Assembly (NCBI GenBank): GCA_003577165.1 | Contig: QEUM01000003.1 | Coordinates: 62,001-126,000 of the forward strand | Length of the DNA stretch: 64,000 nt | Reading direction: 5' to 3' | Origin: Armatimonadota bacterium | Lineage (GTDB): Bacteria > Armatimonadota > Fimbriimonadia > Fimbriimonadales > ATM1 | Shown here: positions 1,109 through 52,570 of the stretch, one piece after another | Layout: each line of letters opens with the position of its first letter | How positions within the stretch are numbered: position 1 is the stretch's first letter | The notes under the pieces: model-generated | Databases searched by the model: none | What the model saw: the letters and a program-made list of their open reading frames with translations, nothing else | Told to the model about the DNA's origin: nothing | Translations under genes and position numbers: made by a program

Positions 1109-1165
1109 ATGGGTCACCTCCGATTCTTCAAACGCAAAACCTGTCTTATCGTTTCTCCAATTGTA

Positions 1166-1867: not shown

Positions 1868-1894
1868 CGCGTCTCCTAAAGTCATTGTCGGGCC

Positions 1895-2755
1895 TTACTC
1901 CGCCGCACCGCCGCCGACACCGCCGCCGGCCGGGGCTCCACCGCCCACAGGTCCGCCGCCGGTTCCGCCGCTCGTTCTCGGGCGAGGCCGCTCACCGGTA
2001 CCGGAGCCCTGCTGGCCGCCTGCGCCTTGCGCTGGGGCGCTCAGGTCGGGAATCCTGCCGCTCTGTTCGGCGCCGCCAAACACGTATTCGGTGTTCACGT
2101 ACGCGACGACCACGAGGTTGTAACTTCCTCGGAGCCGGCTTCCCGTGCCAGTAATGCCCAGGCCGCGAACCATCGCGACGTAGCCGGGGATCTTCGTCCA
2201 GGACCGAACGTGGTTCGTGATCTGATCGTAGGTTCCCTCGACTGTGATCGTGCCGAGGTCCCACACGCAGACCGGGAAGGGGATGGCCGGGTAGTGGAAG
2301 TAAAACTCGACCAATTCGTTGGGTAAGTCGGTTGGGTAGGGCACGAACGGGCCGACCTCGGCGTTCTGCACCGGCTGCAGGATGCGCACACCGCTCTTCT
2401 GGATCCAACTTCGCAGATCAGCTTCGACCTGCGAGTGCCACTTTCTCACGTCCACCGTGCTCTGCCATCGGTGAGTCATGAGGTTCATTCGCCCCATGCT
2501 CGGGGTCCGAGTGTCCGCGATCAGCTTCCACTCCTGTTCCGCCTCCGACACCTTTTCGAGCGCCGTGCGAACTCTCTCTTGGGCAGCCTTCTGGCTCTCG
2601 GCCGAGGCGATCTGCCGCAATTCAGCGACGTGCTTCTCCCAGTAGCCGATCTCGGTTCTGGTCTTGCTGATGGAGAAGAACCAGAAGCCGGCCCAGGTGA
2701 CCAAGATCAGCACCAAGCCGCAGACGAAGAACGTAATTGGACTCAACCTAAACAT
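1895..2755 (-). CDS. pilO: PilO-like pilus assembly protein
   Basis: 286 residues. One transmembrane helix near the N-terminus (about 7-27, ITFFVCGLVLILVTWAGFWF) is followed by a likely coiled coil (about 35-80, rich in Glu, Ala, Gln and Lys) and a globular periplasmic part. This is the PilO layout: a bitopic inner-membrane protein that pairs with PilN and holds the alignment complex together. The last 50 residues form a Gly/Pro/Thr-rich tail not usual for PilO. The gene follows pilN by 24 bases. Identity to known PilO cannot be judged from sequence alone; the topology and the operon position are the main grounds. Confidence 0.7.
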   Translation of the reverse strand: MFRLSPITFFVCGLVLILVTWAGFWFFSISKTRTEIGYWEKHVAELRQIASAESQKAAQERVRTALEKVSEAEQEWKLIADTRTPSMGRMNLMTHRWQSTVDVRKWHSQVEADLRSWIQKSGVRILQPVQNAEVGPFVPYPTDLPNELVEFYFHYPAIPFPVCVWDLGTITVEGTYDQITNHVRSWTKIPGYVAMVRGLGITGTGSRLRGSYNLVVVAYVNTEYVFGGAEQSGRIPDLSAPAQGAGGQQGSGTGERPRPRTSGGTGGGPVGGGAPAGGGVGGGAAE

Positions 2756-2779
2756 CTGCTCACCAACCCATCCCCGGGC

Positions 2780-3592
2780 TTAACTGCCCGCGGCGCCTCC
2801 TGCTCCACCTGCGCCCGGAGGTCCACCGCCTCCCGGAGGCGCTCCGGTTCTTCCTCCAGGCCCACCGGCCCCAGGAGGTCCACCACCGCCCGGAGGCGGA
2901 GGCCCGCCGCCCGGCTGGGGTGCGCCACCCGGTTGAGGTGCGCCGCCACCGCTCGCTGCCGAGGTGAGCGTTGCCAAGGGATCAGGCGCCTGCAGACCGA
3001 ACTCCATCTGAACCGTGAGGGTCACGTTCGACCATCCGGGGATGGGGCCACGATCGGCGATCTCAGGACTGTAGCCGAAGGGTCCTTCATCGTCTGGCGC
3101 AACCGGGGCAAACCCGCTCCGTCCCACGGCGACCGCGCCGGGGATTCGGAGGAGAGCGATCATGACGTCACTGTACTGCTGGAAAGTCTTGAGGTAGCCG
3201 TTGATCGAAACGGTGCAGCCGCTGGCTCCTGAACTTGTGGCGCTGATCGAACGAACTCGGAAGAAGGAAGGGATGTACTGCTTGACCAGGTCGTAGAGTT
3301 CTGGATACCGGTCCGTGGCCGCGTCCATGTCGGCGACCAGTTGGGTGTTCGTCAAAACGATCTTGGCGTCGGCGATGATCTGGTCCGCTCTTTGAGAGGC
3401 TCGAACCACCTTGTCGGCCTCCGGCTGTAAAAGCGCCGCTTCGGATTTGAAACTTTCGAGGTCGCCTACGAGTTTCCGGTTGTACATAAACGCGAGAACA
3501 AGCGAACCGAGCACGGCGATCAGCATGATCGTAAAGACGGACTTGCTTTGTACGTCCTTCCTGACTGTCTTCGGTAGTAGGTTGAGCTTCAT
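2780..3592 (-). CDS. pilN: PilN-like pilus assembly protein
   Basis: 270 residues. It opens with MKLNLLP, matching the conserved cytoplasmic (I)NLLP stretch with which PilN docks onto PilM. A transmembrane helix (about 20-39, SVFTIMLIAVLGSLVLAFMY) and a coiled-coil-like segment follow, then a small alpha/beta domain (VRSISATSSGASGCTVSING; VMIALLRIPG). From about residue 210 to the end the protein is a Gly/Pro repeat tail (GGAPQPGGAPQPGGG). The gene starts 18 bases downstream of the pilM stop, consistent with co-transcription. In this family PilN bridges cytoplasmic PilM and periplasmic PilO. Confidence 0.78.
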   Translation of the reverse strand: MKLNLLPKTVRKDVQSKSVFTIMLIAVLGSLVLAFMYNRKLVGDLESFKSEAALLQPEADKVVRASQRADQIIADAKIVLTNTQLVADMDAATDRYPELYDLVKQYIPSFFRVRSISATSSGASGCTVSINGYLKTFQQYSDVMIALLRIPGAVAVGRSGFAPVAPDDEGPFGYSPEIADRGPIPGWSNVTLTVQMEFGLQAPDPLATLTSAASGGGAPQPGGAPQPGGGPPPPGGGGPPGAGGPGGRTGAPPGGGGPPGAGGAGGAAGS

Positions 3593-3610: not shown

Positions 3611-4813
3611 TTAGTCGTAGGCAATATGTAAACCCATGCCGACCGCGACCGCGAATTCTGATGCCGCGGACTGCACATAGGTTTCACCTGAACCAGAAAC
3701 GCTTACCTCGATTCCCTGGAACGGATTGATCTTCGTCACCGGAATGCTCAGGGACTTCTCGATGAACTTGTCGAGGCCTCTGAGGTTGGCGCCGCCGCCA
3801 GAGAGGGCGATCGTCTCGACCTCGCCGCCTCGGCTCTTGTAGTAGTCCACGGACCGCCTCAGTTCGGCGGCGAATTCGTCGAGGTGCGCAACCATCGCGC
3901 CCTGGATCTTCTGGAGGTCGCCGCCGCCCGCGTCTGGGGCAGGCGCAGCCTCGCCCTCTGCTTCGGGCTGACCGCCGCCGCCCTCGTTCTCGCCGGAGAA
4001 CGGGTTATAAGGTTGGAAACTTGGCTGCATCGTCACTCCGGGAACGCCGAATGCGGCTCCTCCCGATTCAGGCGCGGCGGCCTGCGTGCGCTTCTTCTCT
4101 TCGGCCTCCGCAAAAGTGATGGTGAATGCATCCGCGATTGCTTTCGTAAGCGAACTGCCACCGAGCGGAACCGTTCTCGGGAACGCGAGCACTCCCTGGC
4201 GATACATGTTGATCGCGGTGGAACTGTGACCGATGTGAACGACGCACGCGTCCTTCGTTGCGATGTCGTTGTAGTGACAACTCTTGAGGACTCGGCTAAG
4301 GCCGAGGGGCTCGACGTCGATCGCAGCCGGCTTGCAGCCGGCAGCCTTAAGAAGCGCGACGATGGAGTCGATGGCGCTCTGCGGGGAGACGGCCATCACG
4401 ACTTCCATGTTCTGCGAGTTAGCCAAATTCGGATTGTCGATCGGGCGGTAGTCGCTCACGATCGTGCTCTCAGCGAACGGGATGTTCCGCTGAATCTCCC
4501 ACTGCATGTGCTCGCTCAGTTCAGCGTCGCTCATGCGAGGGACTTCCAGGATGCGGACAACGACCGATGACTGACCGTTGATGCAGAAAACGGCCTGCTT
4601 GATTGAGATCCCGGACTCTCCAAGTAGGGCGCGAAGCGCGGCGCCGAGAGTCTGGGGATCGAAGATGCCGGTGTGGTCCACGGTGCCATCGGGCGTCGGA
4701 CACATGCCGAGACCCACCACGGCGGGGCCGCCGGCGCCTTGTCTCACCGCGGCAATCTTGATGGATTGGGTGCCGATGTCAACACCCAGCCCCTGACTCA
4801 AACGCTTAGCCAT
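3611..4813 (-). CDS. pilM: PilM, FtsA/actin-like pilus assembly ATPase
   Basis: 400 residues. The N-terminus has the actin-fold phosphate-binding strand GLGVDIGTQSIKIAAV (about 8-23), and near the C-terminus the adenosine-side motif LSGGGANLRGLDKFIE, both typical of PilM. PilM is a cytoplasmic actin-like protein that binds the PilN N-terminus. A Gly/Pro/Ala/Glu-rich insertion (about 245-300) interrupts the fold between the two halves, longer than usual. The start ATG 4813 has GGGAGG upstream with a 4-base gap. It is the first gene of the pilM-N-O-P unit and has its own promoter. Confidence 0.93.
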   Translation of the reverse strand: MAKRLSQGLGVDIGTQSIKIAAVRQGAGGPAVVGLGMCPTPDGTVDHTGIFDPQTLGAALRALLGESGISIKQAVFCINGQSSVVVRILEVPRMSDAELSEHMQWEIQRNIPFAESTIVSDYRPIDNPNLANSQNMEVVMAVSPQSAIDSIVALLKAAGCKPAAIDVEPLGLSRVLKSCHYNDIATKDACVVHIGHSSTAINMYRQGVLAFPRTVPLGGSSLTKAIADAFTITFAEAEEKKRTQAAAPESGGAAFGVPGVTMQPSFQPYNPFSGENEGGGGQPEAEGEAAPAPDAGGGDLQKIQGAMVAHLDEFAAELRRSVDYYKSRGGEVETIALSGGGANLRGLDKFIEKSLSIPVTKINPFQGIEVSVSGSGETYVQSAASEFAVAVGMGLHIAYD

Positions 4814-4955: not shown

Positions 4956-7900
4956 CTATAGCCTCGACGGTCCGAACCTCGGAGCCACGCTCAAGTAGTA
5001 CAGGTCGGGGCTTCCCGAGCGGGTGCTCGAGAAGAACAGCCAAACCTGCGGAGGTCGAGCCGGGCCCAGTGTCGGGTTCGGGTCGAACAGGTCTGGGAAG
5101 GCGTACACGCTGCCCTCGTTCACTGCCTGCTCGATCGGAATCGGAGACTCGGCCATCTCAGCCTGCCAGGTCACCGAGTTCGTCACGCTGTCCGACTGCA
5201 GGTTGCCGAAGTTGTCTCTGTAGTTGTACGTGATCGTCAGAGTCCGGCCCTCGTCGGGGAGAGTGAAGAACACCCTGCGGTTGGCCGGATCCACTTGGTA
5301 GAACGGCCCCGCCATGCCGGCGACCGTGATCAGAGGATTGCCCGTCGCCGGGTCGATCGCCACCGGGAAGTTCAGCCTGATCTGAAGCCGCTGGGTCTTC
5401 ATGTACGGCCGGAAGTTTTGCCCCGCGCCAGCGGCGCCCCGCTGATACACGAACCACAGTCGAGCCATTCTCGGCGCATCCGTGCTCACGATGGGCGAGA
5501 AGGCTCCGGGTCTCGAGTAGTAGAGCCGGTTCGTCTCGAAACGGTTGTCGAGGAACGCGCTCGGGTTGGAATGGCCGCCTGTGTCTCCCAGGTCACTGAC
5601 CCGGATGACCCGTGGCGTGTACCTCAACTCAACCTGCGCTCCCGGCCCAGGATCGCCACCGGCGAACCGAAGCGTGCCGACGTGCGGGTCGCAGTAGATC
5701 TTGCCACCGGTCTCGCTGTCGAAAGACACGACACCCGTGTCGTCGTCCGTCTGCCGAGACGCCGGGATGTCCACACGAACCGGCGCCTGGTTGGGTCGCC
5801 GGATCCAGATTTCGAGCGGCTGGCGGAGGTTCCAGTTCACGCCTCGGGCGCGGAATGTGGAGGTGTCGCCCTCGCGGGCCAGGGCCTCACGGTTCCGCTC
5901 CGGCAGGTTCTGAATGCCTCTCACATGCCCCAGCGCGTCCGTGTTGGTCTTCATGAAGAAGATCTCCGGCTGAGCGCGGTCACGCAGTTGGCCGGTGAAC
6001 ACGAGGTCAATTCCGGTGATGCGGTCGATCGGCGTCGGGTCCCATGCTGACGAGAAGCCCGTGCCTGGATCCACGGAGAGGTTCTTCGACCAGTCGTCTG
6101 TCTGATCGCCGCCTCCGAGGGACCGTACCAGGCGGACGTTCTGGAACAGGCGGTTCTTGCCGTTGACGTTCGAATACCAGAACACGACCTGGCCGTTACC
6201 GGAGAAGTTGATGACCCGCGGCCGCCTCTTCTCCACGGCCGGATCCCAAGCGATCCAGTTCAGCGGGCCGAGGGCGGGCTGAACGTAGCCCGGCCCCATC
6301 GTGTACGACCGGTAGAAGATTCGATTGTCGCTGAAGTCGGGCCGGCCGTCAGCCGAATCATCCTTCAGCACCCGGCCCGTGAAGAACATCAGGTCACCCT
6401 CGGGAGAAGGTATGGGCACCTGCCTCGGGTTGTAGCAGAACGTCGGGTCGGCGAACTGGGCCGTGCCCACGATCACGCCGGGAGTGCCCGCGAAGAGCGT
6501 CGTCAGCGGCTCGCTGGGCTCTGGGCCTCGATACTTCCACCAGAACGCGTTGCCCATCGGCAGCCAGCCCATCAGGTCACGCAGCGGACTGGTGCCCACC
6601 TGTGCCGGGAGGCTTCCCTGCGGGGTTGCGCGCACGAAGCCGAAGTACAGGCGCCAAGCGTCCTGAGGCTGCGGCGCGGCAATCGAGTTCGGCAAGCCGG
6701 GCCGGTTGGAGACCCAAGCCATGTTCAGGTTGCCCGTCGCGTCGCGGTACACGCCGGGCGCCACGTTCGTCCACGTGAAGTTCGTGGGTCCGGGCAGAGG
6801 CTCATCGACGTGGATCGCGGAGCCGGAGGTGACGCCTCCCGTCAACCGCGTCTCGCGATTGATGAACCGAACGGTCATCGTTGGGTCGGAGAACGCCTCG
6901 ATCGGCTGGTTCCCGGTACCGAGGGCGAGCGCAACGTCGTTCTGGCCGCCGATCAGGAAACTGTCCTCGATGACGTTGATCAGCTGTCGGTACTCACCGA
7001 CAGGATGGCCAAGCGGCACCGCGACGCCGACCAGAGGTTGGCTGTTCGGCGGCGGGGTGAAGCCGTATGGAACGTCCGGGACGGAGAGAACGGTCGGCGA
7101 CCTGTCTCCCGGCCGGGCCTTGTGCAGCGTCACTCGCGGGTTGCCGCTCGCGTCATAGACGCCCTGATCGGGCGCGTACGGCGGGTTGAGATTCGTGATG
7201 ATGTTGGGCCAGCCGTCCAGCCAGGCGAGAGGATCCACAGCCGCGGACTCGAAGGCCACCGGATAGTAAGTGCCATCCGGCCTTCGGATGCGAGTCGCGA
7301 TCCGCAGGTCGAGCATGTTCACGTTCCCCTCGTTGCGGGTCGTGAAGGGTTGGAAGAACAGCCTGAACGGCGCGCCGACGCTGATGTCCGGCACGAACAG
7401 GTTGCCGACCACCCACGGCGCGACAGGCGTATATCCGAGGCTGTGCGGCTCAGAACCGAGGTCCACCGTCTGCTCGACGATCGCCAGGTTCTCGTCGACC
7501 GGCACCGAAACGCCGAAGTTCAAGCTTCGGAACGCCTCCCTTCGGAAGTTCGGCGGCATGTCGGTGAGAGTGTCCTCTAAACCGTCAGGCCGTCCGTTGG
7601 CGTTGCTGTCAACGTAGACGATCGCTCTCGACCGATAACCTCCGTCCAAGGTGTCGCCTGCTGCGTCCACGTAGCCGGTCAAGTTCGCGGGCTGGAAGCG
7701 TAGAATATTGAATTCGACGCCGAACGGAACGCCTTCGAGAATCCTTGTCGTCGGGTTGTTCGGATCGTAACCCGACGGAGGATCGAGCGAAACGTCTTGA
7801 ATGAGAGGATCCGTCGACTGCCCGAACGGGTCGGCGACCAGATCGATGTCCGTTCGATCAATGTCCGGATAGTCGGGGCTCAAGTTCGGACGCGTGGTCG

Positions 7901-10900
7901 GAAGCACTTCCCAAGCGGGCACGTACGGCAGAGGCTTGATCACCGCAGCCGGTCCTCCGCGCCACATTCCGTCGGTGCGCGTCATGCGGACGCGTTTCAG
8001 ACCTGTTCCCGTCAACTCGAGCAGCACGCTGCGGTCGGCGACGTTGAAGCGATTCGCTCCGGACTGCCCGTGGACGACCTGTCCCACGGAAGTCATCAAC
8101 CGCTTGTTGTTCGAGCCGTTGATTCTGTTCTCAGGATCGGTCGCGATCGGAGTCCAGCCGATGGACTTGTTCGCAGGTGGAGTGCCAACGTAATTGCTGA
8201 CCGTGGTCACAGCAATCGGGTTCGCTACTGTGATGTTGCGTGCCAACAGGTTCGGCGGATCGAATTGACGGCCGTTGTACAGAACGATCGCGTCTACCCT
8301 GATTCCGCTTCCCGGAGTCAGGAAGTTCGGGCCGCTGGCGATCATCGGAACGCCGATAACGGCGAAACCGCTACTGGGCGAACCAGGAGCGCGGCCGGAA
8401 ATCAATTCTGCGGGCCGATCGTAAGTGAGGTTTAGGCCACCCGGTCCCGTCACACGGAATCGAACCGTCACAGAGTCCGGCGGCACTGGGTACACAAAAT
8501 CGTACGCCGTGATGTAAAGGGTCTCACCCCATTCGAGAGCGGGGATCGTGGGAGGCGGGTCCTTCTCCGGCAGACCGGCAGGATCCGGTGGCGCAGGCGC
8601 GCGCAGCTGCTCGTATCCGTTCTTGAACACAAACTTCAACTTCATGTCGTCGAAGCCCGGAATCGGATCATCCGGAGTCGCGATCTCGTCACCGGGGGGG
8701 GTGAAGCCGGGATCGACCGAAATGACGCCACCCGTCGAGAACGCGTACGTGAATCCATCAATGCCGGCGTGATACATCCACCCACGCGAAATCGCGGGCG
8801 ATGCGAACACTCGGCTGCCTTCGGATTGGTAGCCCCACGCGAGGCGAGTTCCTGCGCTGTTCGTGTTCGCCGGATTCGCGTAAAGCGCGATGAACGCTCC
8901 GCCCAGTGTGCCGAACGTGATGACGTCGAACGTCCCCACCACGCCTGGAGGCTGGATGGGAGTGAAGTACGGTGAACTCCAGGCGCCGATGCCAAGTTCG
9001 TCAGTCTGCCAAACCAGCGTTCCGTCCGAGCCCTGCACGCAGTACGCCGTGCCGTTGTCGTTCACGAAATACACGAGGTCGTCGGCAGGCGCGGGCGGCA
9101 AAAACCGGCCCTGTGGCACATAGCACGCCGAGGAGAATTGGAACGGCTCGAGCGGCGTGGATGCTGCAGGCGGATACTGCCAGTTGTCGACGGCCGCCGT
9201 GCTGCCACCGATGTCCCTCGCATAGACGAATCCGTCGAAGGAGGGCACGATGACATGTGTGCCGCCGATGGTGGGTGTGCAAGTGAATGCGCCCACCGGC
9301 TCATCCACGAAGTCGGGCCAAGCCCAGTTCAAGTCTGTCGTTCGATTCGCGTTGCCTTGAGCGTCGATCGCGAACAGTCGGCCTTCCGTTCCCGCGGCGA
9401 ACACTTGCTCCGTCGCTGCATCGTAAGCGACCGATCCGACGAATGGCAAGCGAGCCGGGTCTTGCACCACGCTCGTGCCGTTGTAGATGGATCGCGGCCA
9501 AGTCCAGTCGCGCGTAGTCGTGCCGGGCTTGCCGGTGCTCACATCGTAATCGCCTCGACCTTCGCAGTCGATCGCGTAGACGCGGCCATTCTGGCTCGCC
9601 ACAAACAGCACGTCCTTCCCTCCGACATTCGCAACGACCATCGAACTCACGCCGAACGCGCCCGGCATGGACGCGCGGCTTCCGGTCGGCCCGTCTATCG
9701 AGTCGTTCGGGTCCGTCCAACTCGGATCGTTAATATCGGGGATCGAGGGATAAGCCCAGTAAACCGTCGTCCCGCCGTTGCCGTTGCCGTTCGCGTCGAG
9801 ACAATAGATGTGACCATCATCCGCCGCGACAAACACGCACTCCGTGGGAACGACCGGCCCGCCGCTCGTCCGCAGGTTGACTGTCGCAATCGTAGGAGTC
9901 GAGTAGATCGCAGCCTGGTATCGGCCGACGAACATCACCGCATCCGCGACAACGCGACGACCGGCGTCGCCGCCGAAGTTCGAGAAGTTGGTGACTTCGA
10001 GTTCAAGCCCACCCGCAAGTGTGTTGTGCAGGAACGGCCGCGTTCCGATGCGCACCCATCTTCCGCCCTGTGTCTGATCCACGTAGAACGTGACATTCGT
10101 GCCGCTTTCGTGGACGATGTATTCAGCCGCGCGCGCATGAAGCGGCGGGTTCGGCTCGTTCGGGAACCAAACGTACACGTCGTAATACCCGTCGCTCGGA
10201 AGCGCAGGGTCCCATCTCGCACTCGCCGTTGCGGGAGCGGTGATCGTGGCTGGAGCATCCACGTAGTTCGGACCGTACGAGTTGGGTCCAGCGGGAACTG
10301 CCGGGTCGGTCCACCCAGCGTCATGCGTGAACGCGGGATTTGTGTTATCGAAGACTTGGTTGAAGTTCGTGACAAGGGACGGCGACCACACCCACCTCGG
10401 CAAGGAGATGTTCACGCCGCTCGCGTCGATCCCATACACGACGCCGGTCTGAATCTCGACGGAGTTCGTCGGGTCTGTCGGATCGGGTCGCGCCTCATTG
10501 CGCACCGCGACGACGAGGTCCACTGCGCCGATGTCCTTGACCACCGGCGAAGACCAGATCTCTCCCGGCGCAGGAACGGCGATTGCCGAGTCCGCAACGA
10601 CGATGCGATTCGTCACCGGGCCCATCAAACTGTCTCCCGCGTCTCGCGGAACCGAGTTGAAAAGCGTGACGGTGATGTTGCCGAGGGCGTCGGGCTTGAA
10701 TATCCGATTCGTCGTGGTGAGGTTGTTGCCAAGCCGAATCCAGGTGCCGCCTCCGTCGTGCGGAACGATGTCAACGAACTGGTTTCCGTTCTCGTAATCG
10801 ATGCGATAAACCGCGTAGTCGGAGTTCGGCGCTAACACCCCTCCAGGACGCGTGCCGCTGCTCGGGAACCAGACGGAGAGGGAGTAATACTTATCCGGAT

Positions 10901-11312
10901 CGAGTCCCGTGAAACTCCATCTTGCGGTTGCGGTCGCTCCCGCAGTCGGATCTCCCGTGCCCGCAGTGCTGGCAACGACGCTCGTATATCGGTAGGGGTT
11001 TCCTGCGCTGCCGGTCCAGTCCGGGGACTCTTCGAGTGGCGCGGGAGTTGCCCAAGCGCCCGTCGGCTCCGAATAACCGGCTGAGGTGTTGTCCAGCGAG
11101 ATCGAGCGACCCTGTGTGCTCTGCAGGGGGTGCCACCATCGAAGGTTCGCGAGCCCAGGGCCGGGTTCTGTCGGACTTACGTTAACGCCGGAGCGCGAGT
11201 TTTGGCCGCGGTGTGTTGGGCTGTCGCCTTGCGCTTGAACGAGCGCGAATGCGACGCCGGCCAACACGGCGCTGATGCCTGCCTTCCAAACGATGCTTCT
11301 CTTTCGGTCCAT
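4956..11312 (-). CDS. Giant secreted propeller protein with two golvesin-like domains; PilY1-position protein
   Basis: 2118 residues with a signal peptide (core AGISAVLAGVAFALVQAQG). Two copies of a golvesin-type beta-sandwich domain are visible: about 70-250 (ARWSFTGLDPDKYYSLSVWF ... NRIVVADSAI) and about 320-465 (YYDVYVWFPNEP, VDQTQGGRWVRIGT, RRVVADAVMF). A PQQ-like beta-propeller follows (about 465-860, repeated blades such as VFVAADDGHIYCLDANGNG and VYAIDCEG). Later come Ig-like strands, a DSNANGRPD calcium-loop motif near residue 1232, and a C-terminal PD40/TolB-like part (FFSSTRSGSPDLYYLS). The gene is the last of the pilD-prepilin-minor pilin run and lies 12 bases after the 1508-residue protein, so both are probably made together. 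It is likely exported and held on the cell surface or at the pilus tip; the tip role is inferred from gene order. Confidence 0.75.
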   Translation of the reverse strand: MDRKRSIVWKAGISAVLAGVAFALVQAQGDSPTHRGQNSRSGVNVSPTEPGPGLANLRWWHPLQSTQGRSISLDNTSAGYSEPTGAWATPAPLEESPDWTGSAGNPYRYTSVVASTAGTGDPTAGATATARWSFTGLDPDKYYSLSVWFPSSGTRPGGVLAPNSDYAVYRIDYENGNQFVDIVPHDGGGTWIRLGNNLTTTNRIFKPDALGNITVTLFNSVPRDAGDSLMGPVTNRIVVADSAIAVPAPGEIWSSPVVKDIGAVDLVVAVRNEARPDPTDPTNSVEIQTGVVYGIDASGVNISLPRWVWSPSLVTNFNQVFDNTNPAFTHDAGWTDPAVPAGPNSYGPNYVDAPATITAPATASARWDPALPSDGYYDVYVWFPNEPNPPLHARAAEYIVHESGTNVTFYVDQTQGGRWVRIGTRPFLHNTLAGGLELEVTNFSNFGGDAGRRVVADAVMFVGRYQAAIYSTPTIATVNLRTSGGPVVPTECVFVAADDGHIYCLDANGNGNGGTTVYWAYPSIPDINDPSWTDPNDSIDGPTGSRASMPGAFGVSSMVVANVGGKDVLFVASQNGRVYAIDCEGRGDYDVSTGKPGTTTRDWTWPRSIYNGTSVVQDPARLPFVGSVAYDAATEQVFAAGTEGRLFAIDAQGNANRTTDLNWAWPDFVDEPVGAFTCTPTIGGTHVIVPSFDGFVYARDIGGSTAAVDNWQYPPAASTPLEPFQFSSACYVPQGRFLPPAPADDLVYFVNDNGTAYCVQGSDGTLVWQTDELGIGAWSSPYFTPIQPPGVVGTFDVITFGTLGGAFIALYANPANTNSAGTRLAWGYQSEGSRVFASPAISRGWMYHAGIDGFTYAFSTGGVISVDPGFTPPGDEIATPDDPIPGFDDMKLKFVFKNGYEQLRAPAPPDPAGLPEKDPPPTIPALEWGETLYITAYDFVYPVPPDSVTVRFRVTGPGGLNLTYDRPAELISGRAPGSPSSGFAVIGVPMIASGPNFLTPGSGIRVDAIVLYNGRQFDPPNLLARNITVANPIAVTTVSNYVGTPPANKSIGWTPIATDPENRINGSNNKRLMTSVGQVVHGQSGANRFNVADRSVLLELTGTGLKRVRMTRTDGMWRGGPAAVIKPLPYVPAWEVLPTTRPNLSPDYPDIDRTDIDLVADPFGQSTDPLIQDVSLDPPSGYDPNNPTTRILEGVPFGVEFNILRFQPANLTGYVDAAGDTLDGGYRSRAIVYVDSNANGRPDGLEDTLTDMPPNFRREAFRSLNFGVSVPVDENLAIVEQTVDLGSEPHSLGYTPVAPWVVGNLFVPDISVGAPFRLFFQPFTTRNEGNVNMLDLRIATRIRRPDGTYYPVAFESAAVDPLAWLDGWPNIITNLNPPYAPDQGVYDASGNPRVTLHKARPGDRSPTVLSVPDVPYGFTPPPNSQPLVGVAVPLGHPVGEYRQLINVIEDSFLIGGQNDVALALGTGNQPIEAFSDPTMTVRFINRETRLTGGVTSGSAIHVDEPLPGPTNFTWTNVAPGVYRDATGNLNMAWVSNRPGLPNSIAAPQPQDAWRLYFGFVRATPQGSLPAQVGTSPLRDLMGWLPMGNAFWWKYRGPEPSEPLTTLFAGTPGVIVGTAQFADPTFCYNPRQVPIPSPEGDLMFFTGRVLKDDSADGRPDFSDNRIFYRSYTMGPGYVQPALGPLNWIAWDPAVEKRRPRVINFSGNGQVVFWYSNVNGKNRLFQNVRLVRSLGGGDQTDDWSKNLSVDPGTGFSSAWDPTPIDRITGIDLVFTGQLRDRAQPEIFFMKTNTDALGHVRGIQNLPERNREALAREGDTSTFRARGVNWNLRQPLEIWIRRPNQAPVRVDIPASRQTDDDTGVVSFDSETGGKIYCDPHVGTLRFAGGDPGPGAQVELRYTPRVIRVSDLGDTGGHSNPSAFLDNRFETNRLYYSRPGAFSPIVSTDAPRMARLWFVYQRGAAGAGQNFRPYMKTQRLQIRLNFPVAIDPATGNPLITVAGMAGPFYQVDPANRRVFFTLPDEGRTLTITYNYRDNFGNLQSDSVTNSVTWQAEMAESPIPIEQAVNEGSVYAFPDLFDPNPTLGPARPPQVWLFFSSTRSGSPDLYYLSVAPRFGPSRL

Positions 11313-11324
11313 ACGATTCCTCGT

Positions 11325-14300
11325 CTAATATCTGTCAGCAAATTGCGGTCCGCGTAGGGCGCGCGTTCCAACGACCGGCGGCAACTCGAATCTCACGCTC
11401 GACGCGCTGAGTCCGAGCGTCGGCGACGCGAAGTTCATCGTGTTCCCCACCCACTGAGTCACTTCGCCGTACGTCTGAGCGCCGCTGTTCGTGGTTCCAA
11501 AGTAAGAACTTGTGATGAGAACGTCTCCGCCGAGCAGCCTCTTTGCGGCGACCGCTCGGAGTTTGACTCCACGAATGCTCTCGTAAACTGCGTTGGGCAT
11601 CATCCAGACGACGTCCCACTGCGCGCCGTTCTGAACGACCTCGTAAACGCCCGATGAATCGGTGTACATGATCGCGTACAGGATTCGGTTGCCGTTCACT
11701 CCGATTGGCCGCACCGAAATCGTGTTGATGCCAAGAATCCTCTGACGTCCTCCGCCACCCGGCCAGGCCGGCACGTTGACTTCGTTGATCACCTGTCCGC
11801 CATTGATCGGGTCGAAGACGACGATGCCGCCCGGCCCACCGCCGGTCTCCCGGTCTCCAGTGCCGGACGGAACGTCGAGTCCAGTGTTGATGCGCGTCGG
11901 CATCATGTCGCCAACGGCCGCGACGTAAACGAACTGCGCGTTGCCGAGCGCGTCCGTTCCGATCTGGAAGCGCTTGACGCTCGTGAATTGCCAGGTCTTT
12001 CCGCTGAATGTCTGCGGCGTATGCCAAACCAGTTTGCCGATCTGCGGATCACCGGAGGCGTCACGCACGACGTCGCCCACTTCATAGTTCCCTGTAGATG
12101 GGTCAAACGTTGCAGCGTATCGGTCGACGAGTTCGATCAGTCGTCGGTTGCCCGTGTCGGCGATGAGGTAGTGAACCCAGTACTCGTACGCCAATCCGGG
12201 CGGCCCTTGGAACGGGTTGTTCGCGGCGGGCACGAAGTCGCCCCACACGGCGACGTCGCGTGGCTGCTTGAGTTCTTGAACGTCGCCTTCGCTCCAGCCG
12301 TCGGGTCGGTACGTCAAGTCGAGATTCAACTTCTCGATCGATCGAGTCTCGCCGGCGGAGCGATCGATCATCACGATGCGGTCAGCTCCTGTATCTACGA
12401 CTGCGAACTCGTTCTCGTCCAACTTGTACGCCTTCGTCGGGCGAACCAGTTTGGTCACCTTGTAAAGCGTCGTGCCTCCGCTCTGCGCCATTTGGAAACT
12501 CATGTCGGAGGCCCAGTTCGCGAAGCCGGCGGAGTCGAGTTCGACGATGCGCGCCTCGTCGGCAACGATTGTCGTCGCTCGCTTGAATCCGAACACGCCC
12601 TGTCCGGCCCAGGCAATCGCGACTCCATCCCCTGCGACGATCCCGTAGGCTTCTCGCGGCACGCCGAGCAGCGTTTGAGACAGGCGAATGCGGAAATCGT
12701 TGAGCGACTGCACGCCGATTCCTGATGGCCACCGCACGTGCGGATTCGAACGGAACCCAGCGGGAGCCGACGGATCGGTAATCAGCCACCTCACCTGGCG
12801 AAGTCCAGGGTATCCCGGAATCGTAACGATCGAAGGATCGTTCACTGGAATGTCCGAGTCCATCCCGAACAGCGCCGCCTGGCTGGAGGGCGGGAACACT
12901 CCGCCGAGCATGTCGTCGAGCGACGATGAACCTGCAGCGTAAAGCGTGTTGCCCATCACCATCGCGGGGGCGCTGCTTCGGAAACCGGAAATGCCGAAGT
13001 ACCAAAGAAGTGGCGACCACTTCGATCCGGTCGTGTTGGGATCGAGCATCGTCTCCGGCACTCCGTTGCCAGAAACGATCACCGGCATCGAGGCGCTGAA
13101 TGCATTTCGCATCTGGCCCTGGCTGCCGGACATCATGTTCTCGAACCGAATCACGCCTGAAGCCGTGTCGAGGTCGGCCTGATCGTTTTGAAGCGTGTTG
13201 AATCTCTCCGGCACGGACTTGTTGGTGCTCGCCGCGATGTCCGGCTGCCTCATCCTAAAGCCGCGCGGCAGCGGGCCGCCCAATCGAATGTCCACTCGGC
13301 TCGGATTCGCATCAAACGCCAGCAGATATGTGGACGGCACGGGGAAGAAACCAAACCTCTGGTCTGCGGAGACCATCATGTAGAGGACATCTCCCCGAAT
13401 CACGGGGTTGCCGTGGAAGTGAAGTCGCGAAAGCGTGGGCGGCGTCATGCCGAACAGCGTCCACAGGTCGTCTCGCTCGAGGATCGCCGAAGGCACAGTC
13501 ACGTTCGTCGTTCCGTTCAGGGTGACGGTGTATCCGTCATGAAGGTCCCAACGATAAATCAGACGGAAAGCGCCGCGACTGTATTCACGCAGGCAGAAAA
13601 GCGAACCGCCTCTGGTTTCGTTGCCCGTGACGACGAACAAGTTTCCATTCGGCGCGAGAGCGAGAGACTTGAGAGGAGTGCGCTCACGCTGGATGTCGTC
13701 CGGCATGAACAGTTGTCCGCGAATCAGCCTTCCGATAACGTTCGCGGTTCCCCAATCGATGTAGTAGTCAACGCGTGGCGACACGTTGCCGGGGATTCCG
13801 TTCGCGGAGAATCGGATCTGTCCAGGCGAAAACTGAATCGGCGGCCCTAAATTCCAGGAGTTAACAGTGGCGACCGGAACCGGGTCGCCGTTCTGATCCA
13901 CCCACGTGATGTTGAGTCCGTAACTCGACAATCCGCCGGGAAGATAGACGCTCAGTCCCTTCGTCGCAGCGCGCGTGGTGATGGTGACGTTCACTCCATC
14001 GAACGAGTAGGTCGGACTTTCGCCTCTCGCCCCCACCCAGATGCTTGTGATTCCGGCCGTCGCGCCAGTGAGCGTCGAACGATTCGCGACATAAATCACG
14101 CGATCGAGACCGCCGCCCGCTTCTGAAATCGGTATGTAGCCGATCGTCGCTGCGCTGCCCGGTTCGGAAACGTTGGGGGAACCGATGCCGACTGCAGACC
14201 AGTCCTTACCGCCCGTCCTCATTCTCTGGAGGCTCGCGGCGTCGATCACCCAAACTCGGCCGTTGACTTGCGGCCCGTTCTGCACGGGATCGAACACATA

Positions 14301-15851
14301 GACCAAACCCTCCATGTGAATCGGCGAGTAAGGCCCGCGGTTGTCGAGGGAGAGGTCCCAATCTGCGGCCTGCCCATCGGCCCAGTTGATGGTGGTCACA
14401 GGCGGGATGTCAGAAGGCCCAAGCAGGCGGCCTGCTGCGTCTCGCGGATGCGAGTTGAAGACGTTGACTCTGCCGTCTCGATCGACGACATAAACTTGGT
14501 TTCGCGGAACGCCGCCCGCTGGGTTCGCGACCTCGATGCAGAGAGGCGAACTCAGGGGCCCGTTGAGCGGCGTCGAGCGCCACACCAGATCGAACGACGC
14601 ACCGACGCTTGCATCCACGCGCCCGTCGTCGGCGAGTCCATCTCCATCCAGGTCGCGGCTCGGATCTGCCTTGTAAGCGTAGAGCCGGTTGTTGTCACAA
14701 ATGAAGACCAGCCCTTTGTAAACCGAGGGCGGGAAGTAGTTCGTGTGATCGCCCGGGTTGAAGAAGATGGAGGTGTCCTGCCAAGTGCGAAGCAGCGGCG
14801 CGCCAAGGTCGTCCAGCGACGCGTTGGGGCGGCGCGTTCCCTTGCTGAGCGCAGGGTGGCCGGCCGAGAGGGCGATCATGTTGTAAAGGAACTTGATCTC
14901 CGTGCTCGGAATGTTGTAGATGTTGGTGCCGGCGATCGGCCCGCTGTTAGCTCCGAGGCCGATGTTGGTTCCGCCCGCAGGCTCGTTCAAGGCCGATGTG
15001 ATGTTGCCGCTCGTGACGACGAAGAAGCCCGTACCAATGCTGGCGACTCCGACGACGATGCCACTCGAGTTCGTGATGACGTAGTTGAAGCGGTCGAAAT
15101 CGGGGTCGATGTTTTGAACCAGTCCTGGATCGCCTGTGTATCCAACGTTTGCGAGTGTTGACCGAACGATCGCGTGCGTTCCCTGGTGCGCGCCCATGAC
15201 CGACGCATCGAGGGGATTGATCGGATATGGGTAGTTCAGGATCGGGTGCCGAGGCTGACGGATGATCGGGTTGGAGCCTGCGTTCGTCGTCAGGAAACTG
15301 ATAGGAAATCCGTTGAATCCGTCAACCGCTTGAGAGGTTGACTTGTCGAACCAAAGAGTGCCTCCCGCATCGACGAACAGCCTCAGTTTTTCTCGCTCCT
15401 GTGAGTTGAGCGTAATTCCGCCGGGAGCGTGAATCATCAGGATGTCGTACTGCGTGATCTTGTCTTCGCTAATCTGATCGAGATCAACTTCCCAGTACGG
15501 CGCCATGTTCTTCCCGAGGGTTTCCCCTGTCTGGAACGGGTTGGCTCCGCCGAGGATGGCCTGCCACCTTGCCTCCATCGCGGGCGTGACGACCTTCGAC
15601 GCGAGCGGGTTCTCGAACACCCAGCCCGGCGGCTTGAGGTCTGTTCTGCGATCCAAGTTGAAGAACACGTATGGGTCGGCATTCGTCGGAACGCCGGCGC
15701 CCCAGAAACCGGATGTGCTTCGAAGCAGCAGAATGCCCGCTCGCACGCGCGTTTGAGTGAGCGAATAGGAAGTCGGCTGAGAAAGCGCGAGGGCCGCCAG
15801 CGACGCGAGTGCGACTGACGGCAGAAGCCTGCGGATCAGAATTCCTTTCAA
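11325..15851 (-). CDS. Large secreted GATase-like plus propeller protein; PilY1-position protein
   Basis: About 1508 residues. The start is taken as TTG 15851, giving MKGILIRRLLPSVALASLAA, a good signal peptide, with GAGAGG 9 bases upstream; the TTG overlaps the TGA stop of the preceding PilX-like gene (TTGA), so translation is probably coupled. An ATG at 16115 would add 88 residues lying wholly inside that gene and lacking a signal, so it was rejected. Residues about 120-260 look like a DUF4159/GATase-type fold (YDILMIHAPGGITLNSQERE, then FVDAGGTLWFDKST). Propeller-like blades follow, then a calcium-loop motif DLDGDGLAD near residue 400, and late NHL-type repeats (LKQPRDVAV; HYLIADTGNRRLIEL). 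Like PilY1 it sits beside the minor pilins and has a propeller, but there is no von Willebrand A domain visible. Confidence 0.72.
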   Translation of the reverse strand: MKGILIRRLLPSVALASLAALALSQPTSYSLTQTRVRAGILLLRSTSGFWGAGVPTNADPYVFFNLDRRTDLKPPGWVFENPLASKVVTPAMEARWQAILGGANPFQTGETLGKNMAPYWEVDLDQISEDKITQYDILMIHAPGGITLNSQEREKLRLFVDAGGTLWFDKSTSQAVDGFNGFPISFLTTNAGSNPIIRQPRHPILNYPYPINPLDASVMGAHQGTHAIVRSTLANVGYTGDPGLVQNIDPDFDRFNYVITNSSGIVVGVASIGTGFFVVTSGNITSALNEPAGGTNIGLGANSGPIAGTNIYNIPSTEIKFLYNMIALSAGHPALSKGTRRPNASLDDLGAPLLRTWQDTSIFFNPGDHTNYFPPSVYKGLVFICDNNRLYAYKADPSRDLDGDGLADDGRVDASVGASFDLVWRSTPLNGPLSSPLCIEVANPAGGVPRNQVYVVDRDGRVNVFNSHPRDAAGRLLGPSDIPPVTTINWADGQAADWDLSLDNRGPYSPIHMEGLVYVFDPVQNGPQVNGRVWVIDAASLQRMRTGGKDWSAVGIGSPNVSEPGSAATIGYIPISEAGGGLDRVIYVANRSTLTGATAGITSIWVGARGESPTYSFDGVNVTITTRAATKGLSVYLPGGLSSYGLNITWVDQNGDPVPVATVNSWNLGPPIQFSPGQIRFSANGIPGNVSPRVDYYIDWGTANVIGRLIRGQLFMPDDIQRERTPLKSLALAPNGNLFVVTGNETRGGSLFCLREYSRGAFRLIYRWDLHDGYTVTLNGTTNVTVPSAILERDDLWTLFGMTPPTLSRLHFHGNPVIRGDVLYMMVSADQRFGFFPVPSTYLLAFDANPSRVDIRLGGPLPRGFRMRQPDIAASTNKSVPERFNTLQNDQADLDTASGVIRFENMMSGSQGQMRNAFSASMPVIVSGNGVPETMLDPNTTGSKWSPLLWYFGISGFRSSAPAMVMGNTLYAAGSSSLDDMLGGVFPPSSQAALFGMDSDIPVNDPSIVTIPGYPGLRQVRWLITDPSAPAGFRSNPHVRWPSGIGVQSLNDFRIRLSQTLLGVPREAYGIVAGDGVAIAWAGQGVFGFKRATTIVADEARIVELDSAGFANWASDMSFQMAQSGGTTLYKVTKLVRPTKAYKLDENEFAVVDTGADRIVMIDRSAGETRSIEKLNLDLTYRPDGWSEGDVQELKQPRDVAVWGDFVPAANNPFQGPPGLAYEYWVHYLIADTGNRRLIELVDRYAATFDPSTGNYEVGDVVRDASGDPQIGKLVWHTPQTFSGKTWQFTSVKRFQIGTDALGNAQFVYVAAVGDMMPTRINTGLDVPSGTGDRETGGGPGGIVVFDPINGGQVINEVNVPAWPGGGGRQRILGINTISVRPIGVNGNRILYAIMYTDSSGVYEVVQNGAQWDVVWMMPNAVYESIRGVKLRAVAAKRLLGGDVLITSSYFGTTNSGAQTYGEVTQWVGNTMNFASPTLGLSASSVRFELPPVVGTRALRGPQFADRY

Positions 15852-18586
15852 GGGTTCACCTCTCCGAAGTAGAAAAGCTTGGTCCCGACCGGCAGCTTCG
15901 GCATCGGCGGCAGTGTTCTGCCGAATGCGTCGGTGCGGATCGGCGGCGCGTTCGGATTCACCACGCCTCCCACTCGACCCGAAATGAGCACTGGGTCGTA
16001 TTGAATGAACAGATTCGGCACGTAGTCTGTCGCGTTCCCGGGGTTGTGCTGGGACGGAATGAACGTGTTCGATTCTCCGTATTCGGCGGGAATCCATCCC
16101 CAGTGTCGCAGCCACTCTGATTGGTCGGCCATCGTCGGCGGGAAGTTCTCAGCGATGCTGCCGCGAATCGTAATTTTAATGTCGAGCGGCTCACCGTAGA
16201 ACGGGAAGTCCGGGGTTGCTTGGAATTGCGCCAATCGCGTCGGAGCATCCACGTAGGCGTCACGCCGATCGTTGACATTCCAGTTGAACCACGGCCCTGG
16301 AATGACGAAGAAGCTTCCTTCCTGCGCGTACATCGACGCGTGAATTTCCACATCCATCGGCTGAATCGCAGCTCGGCTCAACAAGTAGTTGTTGTTGCCC
16401 CCGGGCGGCGCAATCGAGTTGTCCTTCTTGAACTGGAACTCGTTCTCGTATCCGCCCATCTGCAGCGTGTAGTTGCCGTTCGTCGCGCCGCTAATCGGCC
16501 AAATCTGGAACGACCTCTTCTCGAAGCGTGGGGCCTCCACATCCGTGCCGTATGTCGGAATCGGATTCCCTGGCGGATAGAACGCTGCGGCAAGGTTCGG
16601 CGGGTACTGATTCTCGAACAGATACTCAGGCTGGCCGGAGATGTTCTGGTTGATCAAGAGGTTGATGAACGTCTGCTGAGTCTCCGCGGCGTGCGCAACG
16701 AACAGAGCGGGCACTGCCGGATTGCCGGTGAACGTGTACGAACCAAGCGGCACGGGGAATTGAGCTGTGCCGTAAAACGGGTTGTTCGGATCAACGCGCA
16801 CCCTTTCCGGGTTCGTCGGGTCGTTGTTGTCGCGCATCACTTGCAGCAGGTTGCGGAATGACGACGAGAAGAACTGGGTCGAATTCACGACGACGTTGTC
16901 CTTCGCGAGGAGGGCGATTGTGGACGCGCTGTTCGTGGAGCCGGCGTCGTCCTTCACGATGCTTCCCTCGACGTAGATGCTTCCGTTCATGCTGACGACG
17001 GTGAGCTGCACATTCGTTGGGATGAGTCCGCGAATGCGCACGTTGCCTTCCGCGACGATGAGGCCGTTGAACACTTCGCCGTTGTCGAAGTCCGTTGCGG
17101 ACGGCGACCCGAAGTTCGCCACGCCGGGAGTCATCTCGTTGATGATCCTCAGCCTGCCGTCGGTTCCGTTTCCGAGTTTGAAACGAAGGAGGTGCCGACC
17201 CGTGTCGTTTCGCAGATAGTCGCGCCACGTGTCCTGGTTGTTGCGAATGTTGCGGCTGACGGTGAACCCCGTCGGTTCGAGAAGGATGAACACTCCGTCC
17301 GGCACGTAGAACGGACCGACCCATCGAGATTCGGGGTGGCCGTTGTTCGGATTCAGCCAGTCGAAGCGCTGAGTGAAGTCACCGTCTTCGCTGTCCTTCG
17401 CGACGTCGTTGAGGTTGTCGATGTAGACGCCCTGTCCGTATCCCAACCGGCCGAGGTTGAACTCTCTTCCTGAACCGTCCACCGCGATGCGGCCGCTGCT
17501 GCGCGATGCCAGGCGATATCGGTACTGACCTGTGTTCGGGTCCTGCTCGTCGATGAGGGGCGGCTCTTTATAAGGTATCTGGCGCGGATAGCCTTGTGGA
17601 TCCGGCAGTTCGAGGATGTCGCGCAGCACGCCGCCGAATGTGAGGAACGACGAACTCGCGCTGGTGAAGGCCGTAAAGATGTTGCCGCCCTCATCGCGGA
17701 GCACGAGTTGGCTCGCTCCGCTGTCGTAGAGCAGTTCGCCATGGATGTTCCACTGGTCGCCGAGCGAACGGTTGACCGCGGCGTCCACCGTTCCGTGCAC
17801 GAGAAGGTCGCCGTTGAAGTAAGCGGGCGCGCCGACGAGGATGTTGCCGATGGGCGACGAGACGATCACCGGCGGATAGACCATCGGAACCTGCACCGGC
17901 GTTCCGAGGAAGTTTGCGCCGAAGTCCTCCGGCACTCCGATCTCGATCGGATCCGTCCGCCGCTCCTTGTTCGTCACGAACCGGGCCGACTCGATGATTC
18001 CGATGCTCGCCACTGCGTTGAGCTGCCTCGCGTCCTGAATGTTTTGGCGCCTCACGGCCGTGGGGTCTAGTGAATTGAACGCGCCGGGCCGGCCCACGGA
18101 TTCGATCATTGTGTAGGCGCGAAGTCGCGCCGCATAGGGAATTTGCGCGCCGGCGAACACATCGCTCGGCTCGTATCGCACGCGAATGAGGGCACGCCCT
18201 CGCTCAAAGTTGATGCGGGTAAAGGCGCCCCTGCCATCGGGTCCCCCTTGCCTCAGCCAATAGTAATCGGGATCGGGATTCGTTGCCGCAGGGCTCTCTG
18301 GATCGAAACTCGGATCCAGACCCGGCGGGACGTTCGTGGGAATGGGCGGCTGGGGCCTCCAGTCGGCTCCGTCCTCCGAAAAGCGAAGCTGGTTGAACGC
18401 GTACCGGATGCCCGCCTGCGCCAAATCGTTGGCGATCGAGCGTCGCGTGCCGCCGATCGACAGGTTGATCTGGTTCGACACGATCCGTACGAACAGAAGA
18501 CCGAGGGCGCTGAGAGTAAAGAGGATAGCGAGGGCCACCACAAGGGCGGTACCCCGCGTGCGAATCGTTCTGCGCGCTGAGATCAT
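15848..18586 (-). CDS. PilX-like very large minor pilin protein
   Basis: 912 residues. The N-terminus RTRGTALVVALAILFTLSAL is a PilX-type leader and hydrophobic helix (Gly followed by a helix with no Glu at +5), then IANDLAQAGIRYAFNQL. The body contains beta-helix-like stretches such as VFNGLIVAEGNVRIRG, MNGSIYVEGSIV and IALLAKDNVVVNS, as seen in the adhesive part of long PilX-like proteins. Standard PilX is about 170-200 residues, so this is four to five times longer. It starts 14 bases after the PilW-like gene and its stop overlaps the start of the next gene. It would be cut by PilD and placed at or near the pilus tip. Confidence 0.75.
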   Translation of the reverse strand: MISARRTIRTRGTALVVALAILFTLSALGLLFVRIVSNQINLSIGGTRRSIANDLAQAGIRYAFNQLRFSEDGADWRPQPPIPTNVPPGLDPSFDPESPAATNPDPDYYWLRQGGPDGRGAFTRINFERGRALIRVRYEPSDVFAGAQIPYAARLRAYTMIESVGRPGAFNSLDPTAVRRQNIQDARQLNAVASIGIIESARFVTNKERRTDPIEIGVPEDFGANFLGTPVQVPMVYPPVIVSSPIGNILVGAPAYFNGDLLVHGTVDAAVNRSLGDQWNIHGELLYDSGASQLVLRDEGGNIFTAFTSASSSFLTFGGVLRDILELPDPQGYPRQIPYKEPPLIDEQDPNTGQYRYRLASRSSGRIAVDGSGREFNLGRLGYGQGVYIDNLNDVAKDSEDGDFTQRFDWLNPNNGHPESRWVGPFYVPDGVFILLEPTGFTVSRNIRNNQDTWRDYLRNDTGRHLLRFKLGNGTDGRLRIINEMTPGVANFGSPSATDFDNGEVFNGLIVAEGNVRIRGLIPTNVQLTVVSMNGSIYVEGSIVKDDAGSTNSASTIALLAKDNVVVNSTQFFSSSFRNLLQVMRDNNDPTNPERVRVDPNNPFYGTAQFPVPLGSYTFTGNPAVPALFVAHAAETQQTFINLLINQNISGQPEYLFENQYPPNLAAAFYPPGNPIPTYGTDVEAPRFEKRSFQIWPISGATNGNYTLQMGGYENEFQFKKDNSIAPPGGNNNYLLSRAAIQPMDVEIHASMYAQEGSFFVIPGPWFNWNVNDRRDAYVDAPTRLAQFQATPDFPFYGEPLDIKITIRGSIAENFPPTMADQSEWLRHWGWIPAEYGESNTFIPSQHNPGNATDYVPNLFIQYDPVLISGRVGGVVNPNAPPIRTDAFGRTLPPMPKLPVGTKLFYFGEVNP

Positions 18587-20637: not shown

Positions 20638-20645
20638 TCCGTACC

Positions 20646-52514: not shown

Positions 52515-52570
52515 GTGAAATGCCTCCGGGTCGGTTGAAACGCCGACCTCGAATACCGTACATTCGTCGC

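What the first reader, a model, noticed from the sequence alone, without database searches (positions are those of the whole stretch)
4956..15851. Two giant propeller proteins replace PilY1 in the minor-pilin cluster
Order: pilD, prepilin, PilV-, PilW-, PilX-like, then a 1508- and a 2118-residue secreted propeller protein, tightly packed and on one strand. Elsewhere that last slot holds pilY1, which has a von Willebrand A domain plus a C-terminal propeller. Here neither protein shows a von Willebrand A domain; instead one starts with a DUF4159/GATase-like fold and the other with golvesin-type domains. This looks like a rebuilt pilus tip complex of a kind not described in the standard model.
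Basis: partly seen in the sequence, partly recalled or inferred. Interest (0 to 1): 0.82.

Follow-up and report, generated by a model that had tools for sequence, protein, structure and literature searches.

The report
Giant propeller pair in pilus-tip operon
In the bacterial phylum Armatimonadota, the gene slot that in well-studied bacteria encodes the pilus-tip protein PilY1 instead holds two very large secreted proteins with propeller domains; the arrangement is kept across most of the phylum, which suggests, but does not prove, a different way of building the working end of a grappling-hook-like pilus.

Summary
One strand carries pilB-T-C-D, prepilin, V-, W- and X-like minor pilins, a 1508-aa and a 2118-aa Sec-exported protein, then pilM-N-O-P, split secretin and aroK-aroB: a canonical type IVa pilus locus. 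The big proteins are no local oddity: the 1508-aa family is in 200/251 Armatimonadota genomes. In 55 loci it lies directly behind the X-like pilin in 50/50 assessable cases, with the 2118-aa gene next in 49/50. The block stays together where pilM-Q has moved away. V and W keep Glu5; X lacks it, as PilX/GspK tip pilins do. The 1508-aa protein has a DUF4159-like N-domain, a predicted tandem beta-propeller (pLDDT 83), a Dx[DN]xDG calcium-type loop kept phylum-wide, and a conserved C-terminal tail. No PilY1 (PF05567) or vWA domain matches. Tip location and contact with X are inferred. Some lineages keep V-W-X without the pair. Verdict: real, phylum-wide; probably a functional PilY1 analogue built from different domains.

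The parts
29139..30899 (-). PilB extension ATPase (586 aa)
   Evidence: T2SSE 1.8e-135, MshEN; type_IV_pilB 633 bits against gspE 602
27871..29082 (-). PilT retraction ATPase (403 aa)
   Evidence: TIGR01420 pilT_fam 496.7 bits, cut-off 319
26620..27855 (-). PilC platform protein (411 aa)
   Evidence: T2SSF 1.6e-66; best NCBIfam hit is a PilC model, below its cut-off
23612..24637 (-). PilD prepilin peptidase (341 aa)
   Evidence: A24_N_bact and Peptidase_A24
22700..23554 (-). Prepilin (284 aa), GFTLIELLVV
   Evidence: N_methyl 5.2e-9
20646..22637 (-). PilV/GspI-like minor pilin (663 aa), keeps Glu5
   Evidence: N_methyl 5.7e-5; best NCBIfam hit PilV, sub-threshold; SLxEVL in relatives
18601..20649 (-). 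PilW/GspJ-like minor pilin (682 aa), keeps Glu5
   Evidence: N_methyl 2.5e-6; FTLxELL in relatives
15848..18586 (-). PilX/GspK-position tip pilin candidate (912 aa), no Glu5
   Evidence: Helix start G-QTLVIA / G-TALVVA without Glu5 in relatives with an intact N-terminus; predicted 58-residue N-terminal helix then beta-rich body, pLDDT 81, pTM 0.84
18380..18553 (-). Predicted pilin-type alpha1 helix of the X-like protein (residues 12-69)
   Evidence: DSSP on the AlphaFold2 model
11325..15851 (-). BIG1508: Sec-exported DUF4159-like plus tandem-propeller protein, in the PilY1 slot
   Evidence: Signal peptide by sequence; family in 200/251 phylum genomes; model pLDDT 82.9, pTM 0.80; matches to double propellers
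15339..15476 (-). DUF4159 core match in BIG1508 (residues 126-171)
   Evidence: 21/21 family members
14625..14654 (-). Dx[DN]xDG calcium-type loop DLDGDGLADD (residues 400-409)
   Evidence: Kept, exactly or with small changes, in about 22 of 24 representatives across the phylum; same motif class as PilY1's calcium blade (PMC3123361)
11328..11399 (-). Conserved C-terminal tail SVRFELPPVVGTRALRGPQFADRY
   Evidence...PxxADR end in most relatives; VRFE predicted as a strand
4956..11312 (-). BIG2118: Sec-exported golvesin + PQQ-propeller + ~1240 aa of unassigned sequence
   Evidence: next gene after BIG1508 in 49/50 loci
9927..10355 (-). Golvesin_C domain, best copy (residues 320-462)
   Evidence: Golvesin_C 9.2e-26 for the whole protein, two stretches
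9003..9437 (-). PQQ/BamB-type propeller match (residues 626-770)
   Evidence: PQQ_2 1.2e-8; BamB and designed PQQ-type propeller structures match about the same stretch
3611..4813 (-). PilM
   Evidence: PilM_2 7e-47; TIGR01175 above cut-off
410..3592 (-). PilN-, PilO-, PilP-like genes and N-terminal half of a split secretin
   Evidence: STN domain in 410-1117; N/O/P by gene order and conserved position only; secretin channel ORF lies outside the window, PF00263 1e-36, followed by aroK and aroB

Best explanation
This is the tip/priming module of a type IVa pilus. The minor pilins V, W and X initiate the filament, with X (no Glu5) outermost. BIG1508, secreted by Sec into the periplasm, docks on X, probably through its conserved C-terminal tail, and caps the filament as PilY1 does elsewhere. 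Its calcium-type loop in the first propeller may tune extension or retraction, as PilY1's does. BIG2118 joins the same complex as the larger adhesive piece, its golvesin-type domains binding surfaces or polysaccharide. Shown here: operon identity, linkage, domains, Glu5 pattern, predicted folds, motif conservation. Inferred: secretion, tip location, docking through the tail, calcium control, adhesion.
For: T4aP locus by HMM: PilB over GspE, PilT and PilM above cut-off, with aroK-aroB after the secretin. BIG1508 in 200/251 phylum genomes. X directly upstream on the same strand in 50/50 assessable loci, BIG2118 downstream in 49/50; NTGA junction at the X stop in 32/50. V-W-X-BIG1508-BIG2118 stay linked in family f2, where pilM lies elsewhere, e.g. 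G012: block near 20-38 kb, the matching PilM at 2.54 Mb of one contig. X lacks Glu5, V and W keep it, as PilX/GspK do (PMC7541494). In M. xanthus models PilY1 caps PilX through a C-terminal strand, LQNVYELP (PMC11046646); BIG1508 ends in a conserved tail, SVRFELPP in this order. Calcium-type loop in about 22/24 representatives.
Against: No direct evidence of tip location or of binding to X. G054/G055, G064, G102 and G115 keep V-W-X without any BIG gene behind it, so the pair is not needed for the minor-pilin module. The FELPP tail is order-specific; other classes end differently, so the resemblance to M. xanthus PilY1.3 may be chance. Foldseek gives tandem WD40/NHL propellers with low TM-scores, and PilY1 (3HX6) is not among the 50 listed. 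Operon linkage alone would also fit an exported cargo.
Confidence: 0.6

Rival explanations
1. The locus works like a type II secretion system and the two giant proteins are its co-encoded exported cargo, released or displayed on the surface after being pushed out by the X-like tip pilin.
For: T2SS substrates contact GspK, and PilY1 has itself been called an analogue of T2SS substrates (PMC7541494). Minor pilins V/W/X correspond to GspI/J/K. The F. ginsengisoli genome paper assigned 21 genes to T2SS.
Against: PilT and PilM are present and PilB outscores GspE; pilM..secretin-aroK-aroB is the T4aP arrangement. A cargo gene fixed directly behind the tip pilin across a phylum (50/50) would be unusual.
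Confidence: 0.17
2. The pair are envelope-side accessory proteins (outer-membrane or periplasmic scaffolds that stabilise the secretin or gate the pilus) and never travel on the tip.
For: BamB-type propeller in BIG2118; PilC/PilY1 has also been reported in outer-membrane fractions (PMC13190605).
Against: Linkage follows the minor pilins, not the secretin: in f2 genomes the pair stays with V-W-X away from pilM. No clear membrane anchor beyond the signal peptide by hydropathy, apart from one borderline window in BIG1508 at 262-282.
Confidence: 0.13

Closest known systems
PilY1/PilC (PF05567) with minor pilins FimU-PilV-PilW-PilX (Pseudomonas, Myxococcus, Neisseria)
   Same: Gene slot behind pilX in a T4aP minor-pilin operon; Sec-type signal; variable N-domain plus propeller; Dx[DN]xDG calcium-type loop; conserved C-terminal end
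   Different: No PF05567 match; two proteins instead of one; 1508 and 2118 aa; tandem propellers with DUF4159-like, golvesin and PQQ/BamB domains
PilX/GspK tip pilins
   Same: No Glu5, long N-terminal helix, last minor pilin in the order
   Different: 912 aa with a large beta-rich body; no Pfam or NCBIfam match
ComZ of Thermus thermophilus (tip pilin with beta-solenoid)
   Same: Oversized tip-type pilin in a minor-pilin locus; weak solenoid-family hits (FapA, bactofilin, MinC_C) in relatives of X
   Different: ComZ is not among the 50 listed Foldseek matches of the X model; carbohydrate-binding-module-like folds score weakly instead
Type II secretion pseudopilus (GspG-K)
   Same: Homologous minor-pilin set and platform proteins
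   Different: PilT and PilM present, PilB-type ATPase, aroKB-linked secretin

Membership tests
PilY1/PilC | C-terminal PF05567 propeller domain | tested here: not met
   No hit in the window proteins (E<=1) or in 21 + 15 family members (E<=0.05); 0/251 phylum genomes, but that search had no positive control
PilY1/PilC | Gene directly behind pilX in a minor-pilin operon | tested here: met
   50/50 assessable loci for BIG1508
PilY1/PilC | Calcium-binding Dx[DN]xDG loop in a propeller blade | tested here: inconclusive
   Motif met in BIG1508 in about 22/24 representatives, between two predicted strands but with local pLDDT 54-70; calcium binding itself not tested
PilY1/PilC | C-terminal strand donated to PilX | tested here: inconclusive
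   Conserved C-terminal tail with a predicted strand at residues 1486-1489; no complex could be predicted
PilY1/PilC | N-terminal vWA with MIDAS (only in a subset of the family) | tested here: not met
   No vWA hit; the DxSxS-like DKSTS at residue 169 is not conserved in relatives
PilY1/PilC | Located at the pilus tip and needed for piliation | not testable with these tools
   Needs proteomics, microscopy and mutants
Type IVa pilus locus | PilB, PilT, PilC, PilD, PilM, secretin | tested here: met
   PilN/O/P by position only
PilX/GspK tip pilin | Pilin-type N-terminal helix without Glu5 | tested here: met
PilX/GspK tip pilin | Family HMM match | tested here: not met
   No Pfam or NCBIfam match for the pilin part
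ComZ-type tip pilin | Beta-solenoid inserted in the pilin sheet | tested here: inconclusive
   Weak solenoid-family hits; ComZ not among the listed Foldseek matches
Type II secretion system | No retraction ATPase; GspE-type ATPase; GspC/GspL | tested here: not met
   PilT 496.7 bits, PilB over GspE; no GspC/GspL gene recognised in the cluster

The most novel reading that the evidence does not exclude
A phylum-wide T4aP tip in which the jobs of PilY1 are split between two dedicated giant proteins that are not PilY1 homologues: BIG1508 as the calcium-responsive cap on the X pilin and BIG2118 as the surface-binding adhesin. This would be convergent evolution of a propeller-tipped pilus, with the slot behind X being swapped between lineages (PD40-type propeller protein in G097, a Big_5 protein in G091, nothing in G054/G055).
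Probability: 0.33. Interest if true: 0.78.

Novelty: new variant of a known kind. Interest (0 to 1): 0.62.

Why it matters
PilY1 is described as the tip adhesin and regulator of T4aP, yet it is mainly proteobacterial, so how pili elsewhere are capped is largely open. A conserved, differently built pair in the same slot, sharing a propeller and a calcium-type loop, makes it testable which PilY1 features (propeller, calcium loop, C-terminal strand) are functionally required and which are lineage history. It also names two concrete proteins to look for on pili of Fimbriimonas, whose cells were reported to bear fimbriae.

Tried and rejected
Apparent X-BIG1508 fusion in G031 (2433-aa frame): an out-of-frame upstream extension, not a fusion. 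MIDAS motif in BIG1508: not conserved. ComZ-like solenoid for X: suggested by weak Pfam hits, not retrieved among the listed Foldseek matches. Homology between BIG1508 and BIG2118: profile comparison aligns one ~175-column propeller stretch (E 1.5e-6), consistent with generic propeller blades, not a full duplication. Loss of the pair together with the whole pilus in the 1.5-Mb genomes G054/G055: first suspected, but they keep prepilin-V-W-X elsewhere. Laying the whole genome in the Python box was not available; a 21-row alignment was too diverse for the genome-contig scan, an 8-row one worked. No paper found on golvesin and pili. The C-terminal half of BIG2118 was not modelled: the second structure job went to X.

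Full report
Observation. The minus strand of the window reads PilB (29139-30899), PilT (27871-29082), PilC (26620-27855), PilD (23612-24637), prepilin (22700-23554), V-like (20646-22637), W-like (18601-20649), X-like (15848-18586), BIG1508 (11325-15851), BIG2118 (4956-11312), PilM (3611-4813) and N-, O-, P-like genes and the first half of a secretin. BIG1508 starts with TTG overlapping the stop of X. Beyond the window edge follow the secretin channel ORF (PF00263, 1e-36), aroK and aroB, the neighbourhood known from proteobacterial pilMNOPQ (own knowledge). NCBIfam places the ATPases as PilB (633 bits against 602 for GspE, both below their cut-offs) and PilT (497, cut-off 319), and PilM above cut-off. 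This is a T4aP locus with a retraction motor.

Domains. BIG2118 carries two Golvesin_C stretches (9e-26) and a PQQ/BamB-type propeller near residues 626-880; about 1240 C-terminal residues have no assignment. BIG1508 matches DUF4159 weakly on its own (2.7e-4) but in all 21 family members (best 9e-7), some of which also show NHL or PQQ_2. An AlphaFold2 model of residues 309-1508 on 27 sequences (alignment A4) has pLDDT 82.9 and pTM 0.80, and Foldseek retrieves two-propeller proteins (Sro7, Lgl2, DDB1) and NHL domains. TM-scores over the whole chain are low, so this supports tandem propellers, not a specific relative. PilY1 (3HX6) is not among the 50 matches listed. Neither protein matches PF05567 or vWA.

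Spread. BIG1508 was found in 58/61 and BIG2118 in 57/61 close genomes. Across the phylum BIG1508 was found in 200/251 genomes, an X relative in 233/251. A pattern scan of genome contigs gave 34 loci, nearly all with Armatimonadota titles; the patterns were narrow, so this does not prove that the family is confined to the phylum. In 55 loci with BIG1508, X lies directly upstream on the same strand in 50/50 assessable cases and BIG2118 downstream in 49/50 (G092 lacks it); W and V are upstream in 44 and 40, limited by locus edges. PilM was seen downstream in only 26, in part because loci end early; in family f2 (G012, G020) the pilM-Q part lies elsewhere while V-W-X-BIG1508-BIG2118 stay together. 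The linkage is therefore to the minor pilins.

Not obligatory. Genomes in which BIG1508 was not detected still have V-W-X. G054/G055 (1.5 Mb) have prepilin-V-W-X and then unrelated genes; G064, G102 and G115 likewise, with a long X; G091 has a 1101-aa secreted protein with a Big_5 domain behind X; G097 has a PD40-propeller protein (497 aa) and a 442-aa protein; G142 and G227, where BIG1508 is detected but divergent, keep a pair of similar size. The slot behind X thus looks exchangeable, as expected for a tip or adhesin position, but it also shows that the pilin module can exist without the pair.

Minor pilins. V and W keep Glu5 (LIEVL, LxELL); X does not (G-QTLVIA, window G-TALVVA) in relatives with an intact N-terminus. 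Lack of Glu5 marks PilX and GspK, placed at the tip (PMC7541494). The X model shows one helix from residue 12 to 69 followed by a beta-rich body (pLDDT 81, pTM 0.84); its fold matches are weak, mainly jelly-roll carbohydrate-binding modules, and ComZ is not among those listed.

Comparison with PilY1. PilY1 proteins are defined by the C-terminal propeller; a third of the characterised ones have vWA, two have DUF4114 (PMC13190605). Models of M. xanthus place PilY1 on PilX through a C-terminal strand (LQNVYELP in PilY1.3; PMC11046646). BIG1508 ends in a conserved tail, SVRFELPP...PxFADR in this order and ...QPxxADR in others, with VRFE predicted as a strand. The motif likeness is short and order-specific and is offered only as a lead. 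PilY1 also carries a Dx[DN]xDG 'calcium blade' (PMC3123361). BIG1508 has DLDGDGLADD at residues 400-409, kept in about 22/24 phylum-wide representatives, between two predicted strands of the first propeller but at low local confidence. DUF4159 being a GATase-like alpha/beta domain is own knowledge.

Interpretation. The best reading is a T4aP tip complex with BIG1508 in the PilY1 role and BIG2118 as a further surface-binding part. It works like PilY1 by position, export signal, architecture and motif; it is not filed as PilY1 because the defining domain was tested and not found. 'Replaced' is not supported: PilY1 is mainly proteobacterial (PMC4471445) and no Armatimonadota genome searched had it, though that search had no positive control. 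Secretion, tip location, docking, calcium control and adhesion are inferred. The same genome has a second PilM-N-O-secretin-PilB-PilT set without such proteins, so experiments must tell the two systems apart.

Noticed in passing
G000:C18:137700-157600 (L132): A second T4P-like set in the same genome: ExeA-like AAA protein, PilM, N-/O-like, 894-aa secretin scoring best as GspD, a PilB/GspE-type ATPase and PilT, with no giant propeller genes nearby.
   Followed up: partly
window 410-1117 and L134:15671-17362: The secretin is split into two adjacent ORFs, a 235-aa Gly-rich STN protein and a 564-aa channel protein; the same split is seen in relatives such as G003 and G004.
   Followed up: partly
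window 24736-26529 (+): A chorismate-binding/aminotransferase IV gene (pabB type) lies on the opposite strand between PilC and PilD; it is not at this place in G003 or G004, so it looks like a local insertion.
   Followed up: no
L144 (G097), L143 (G091), L136/L137 (G054/G055): The slot behind the X-like pilin is variable: PD40-propeller protein plus a 442-aa protein, a 1101-aa Big_5 protein, or nothing.
   Followed up: partly
window 49464-52883 (-): Another large propeller protein (1139 aa, Sortilin-Vps10/BNR repeats), not linked to the pilus genes.
   Followed up: no
window 39774-42350 (-): 858-aa ORF without any Pfam match near CarboxypepD_reg proteins.
   Followed up: no
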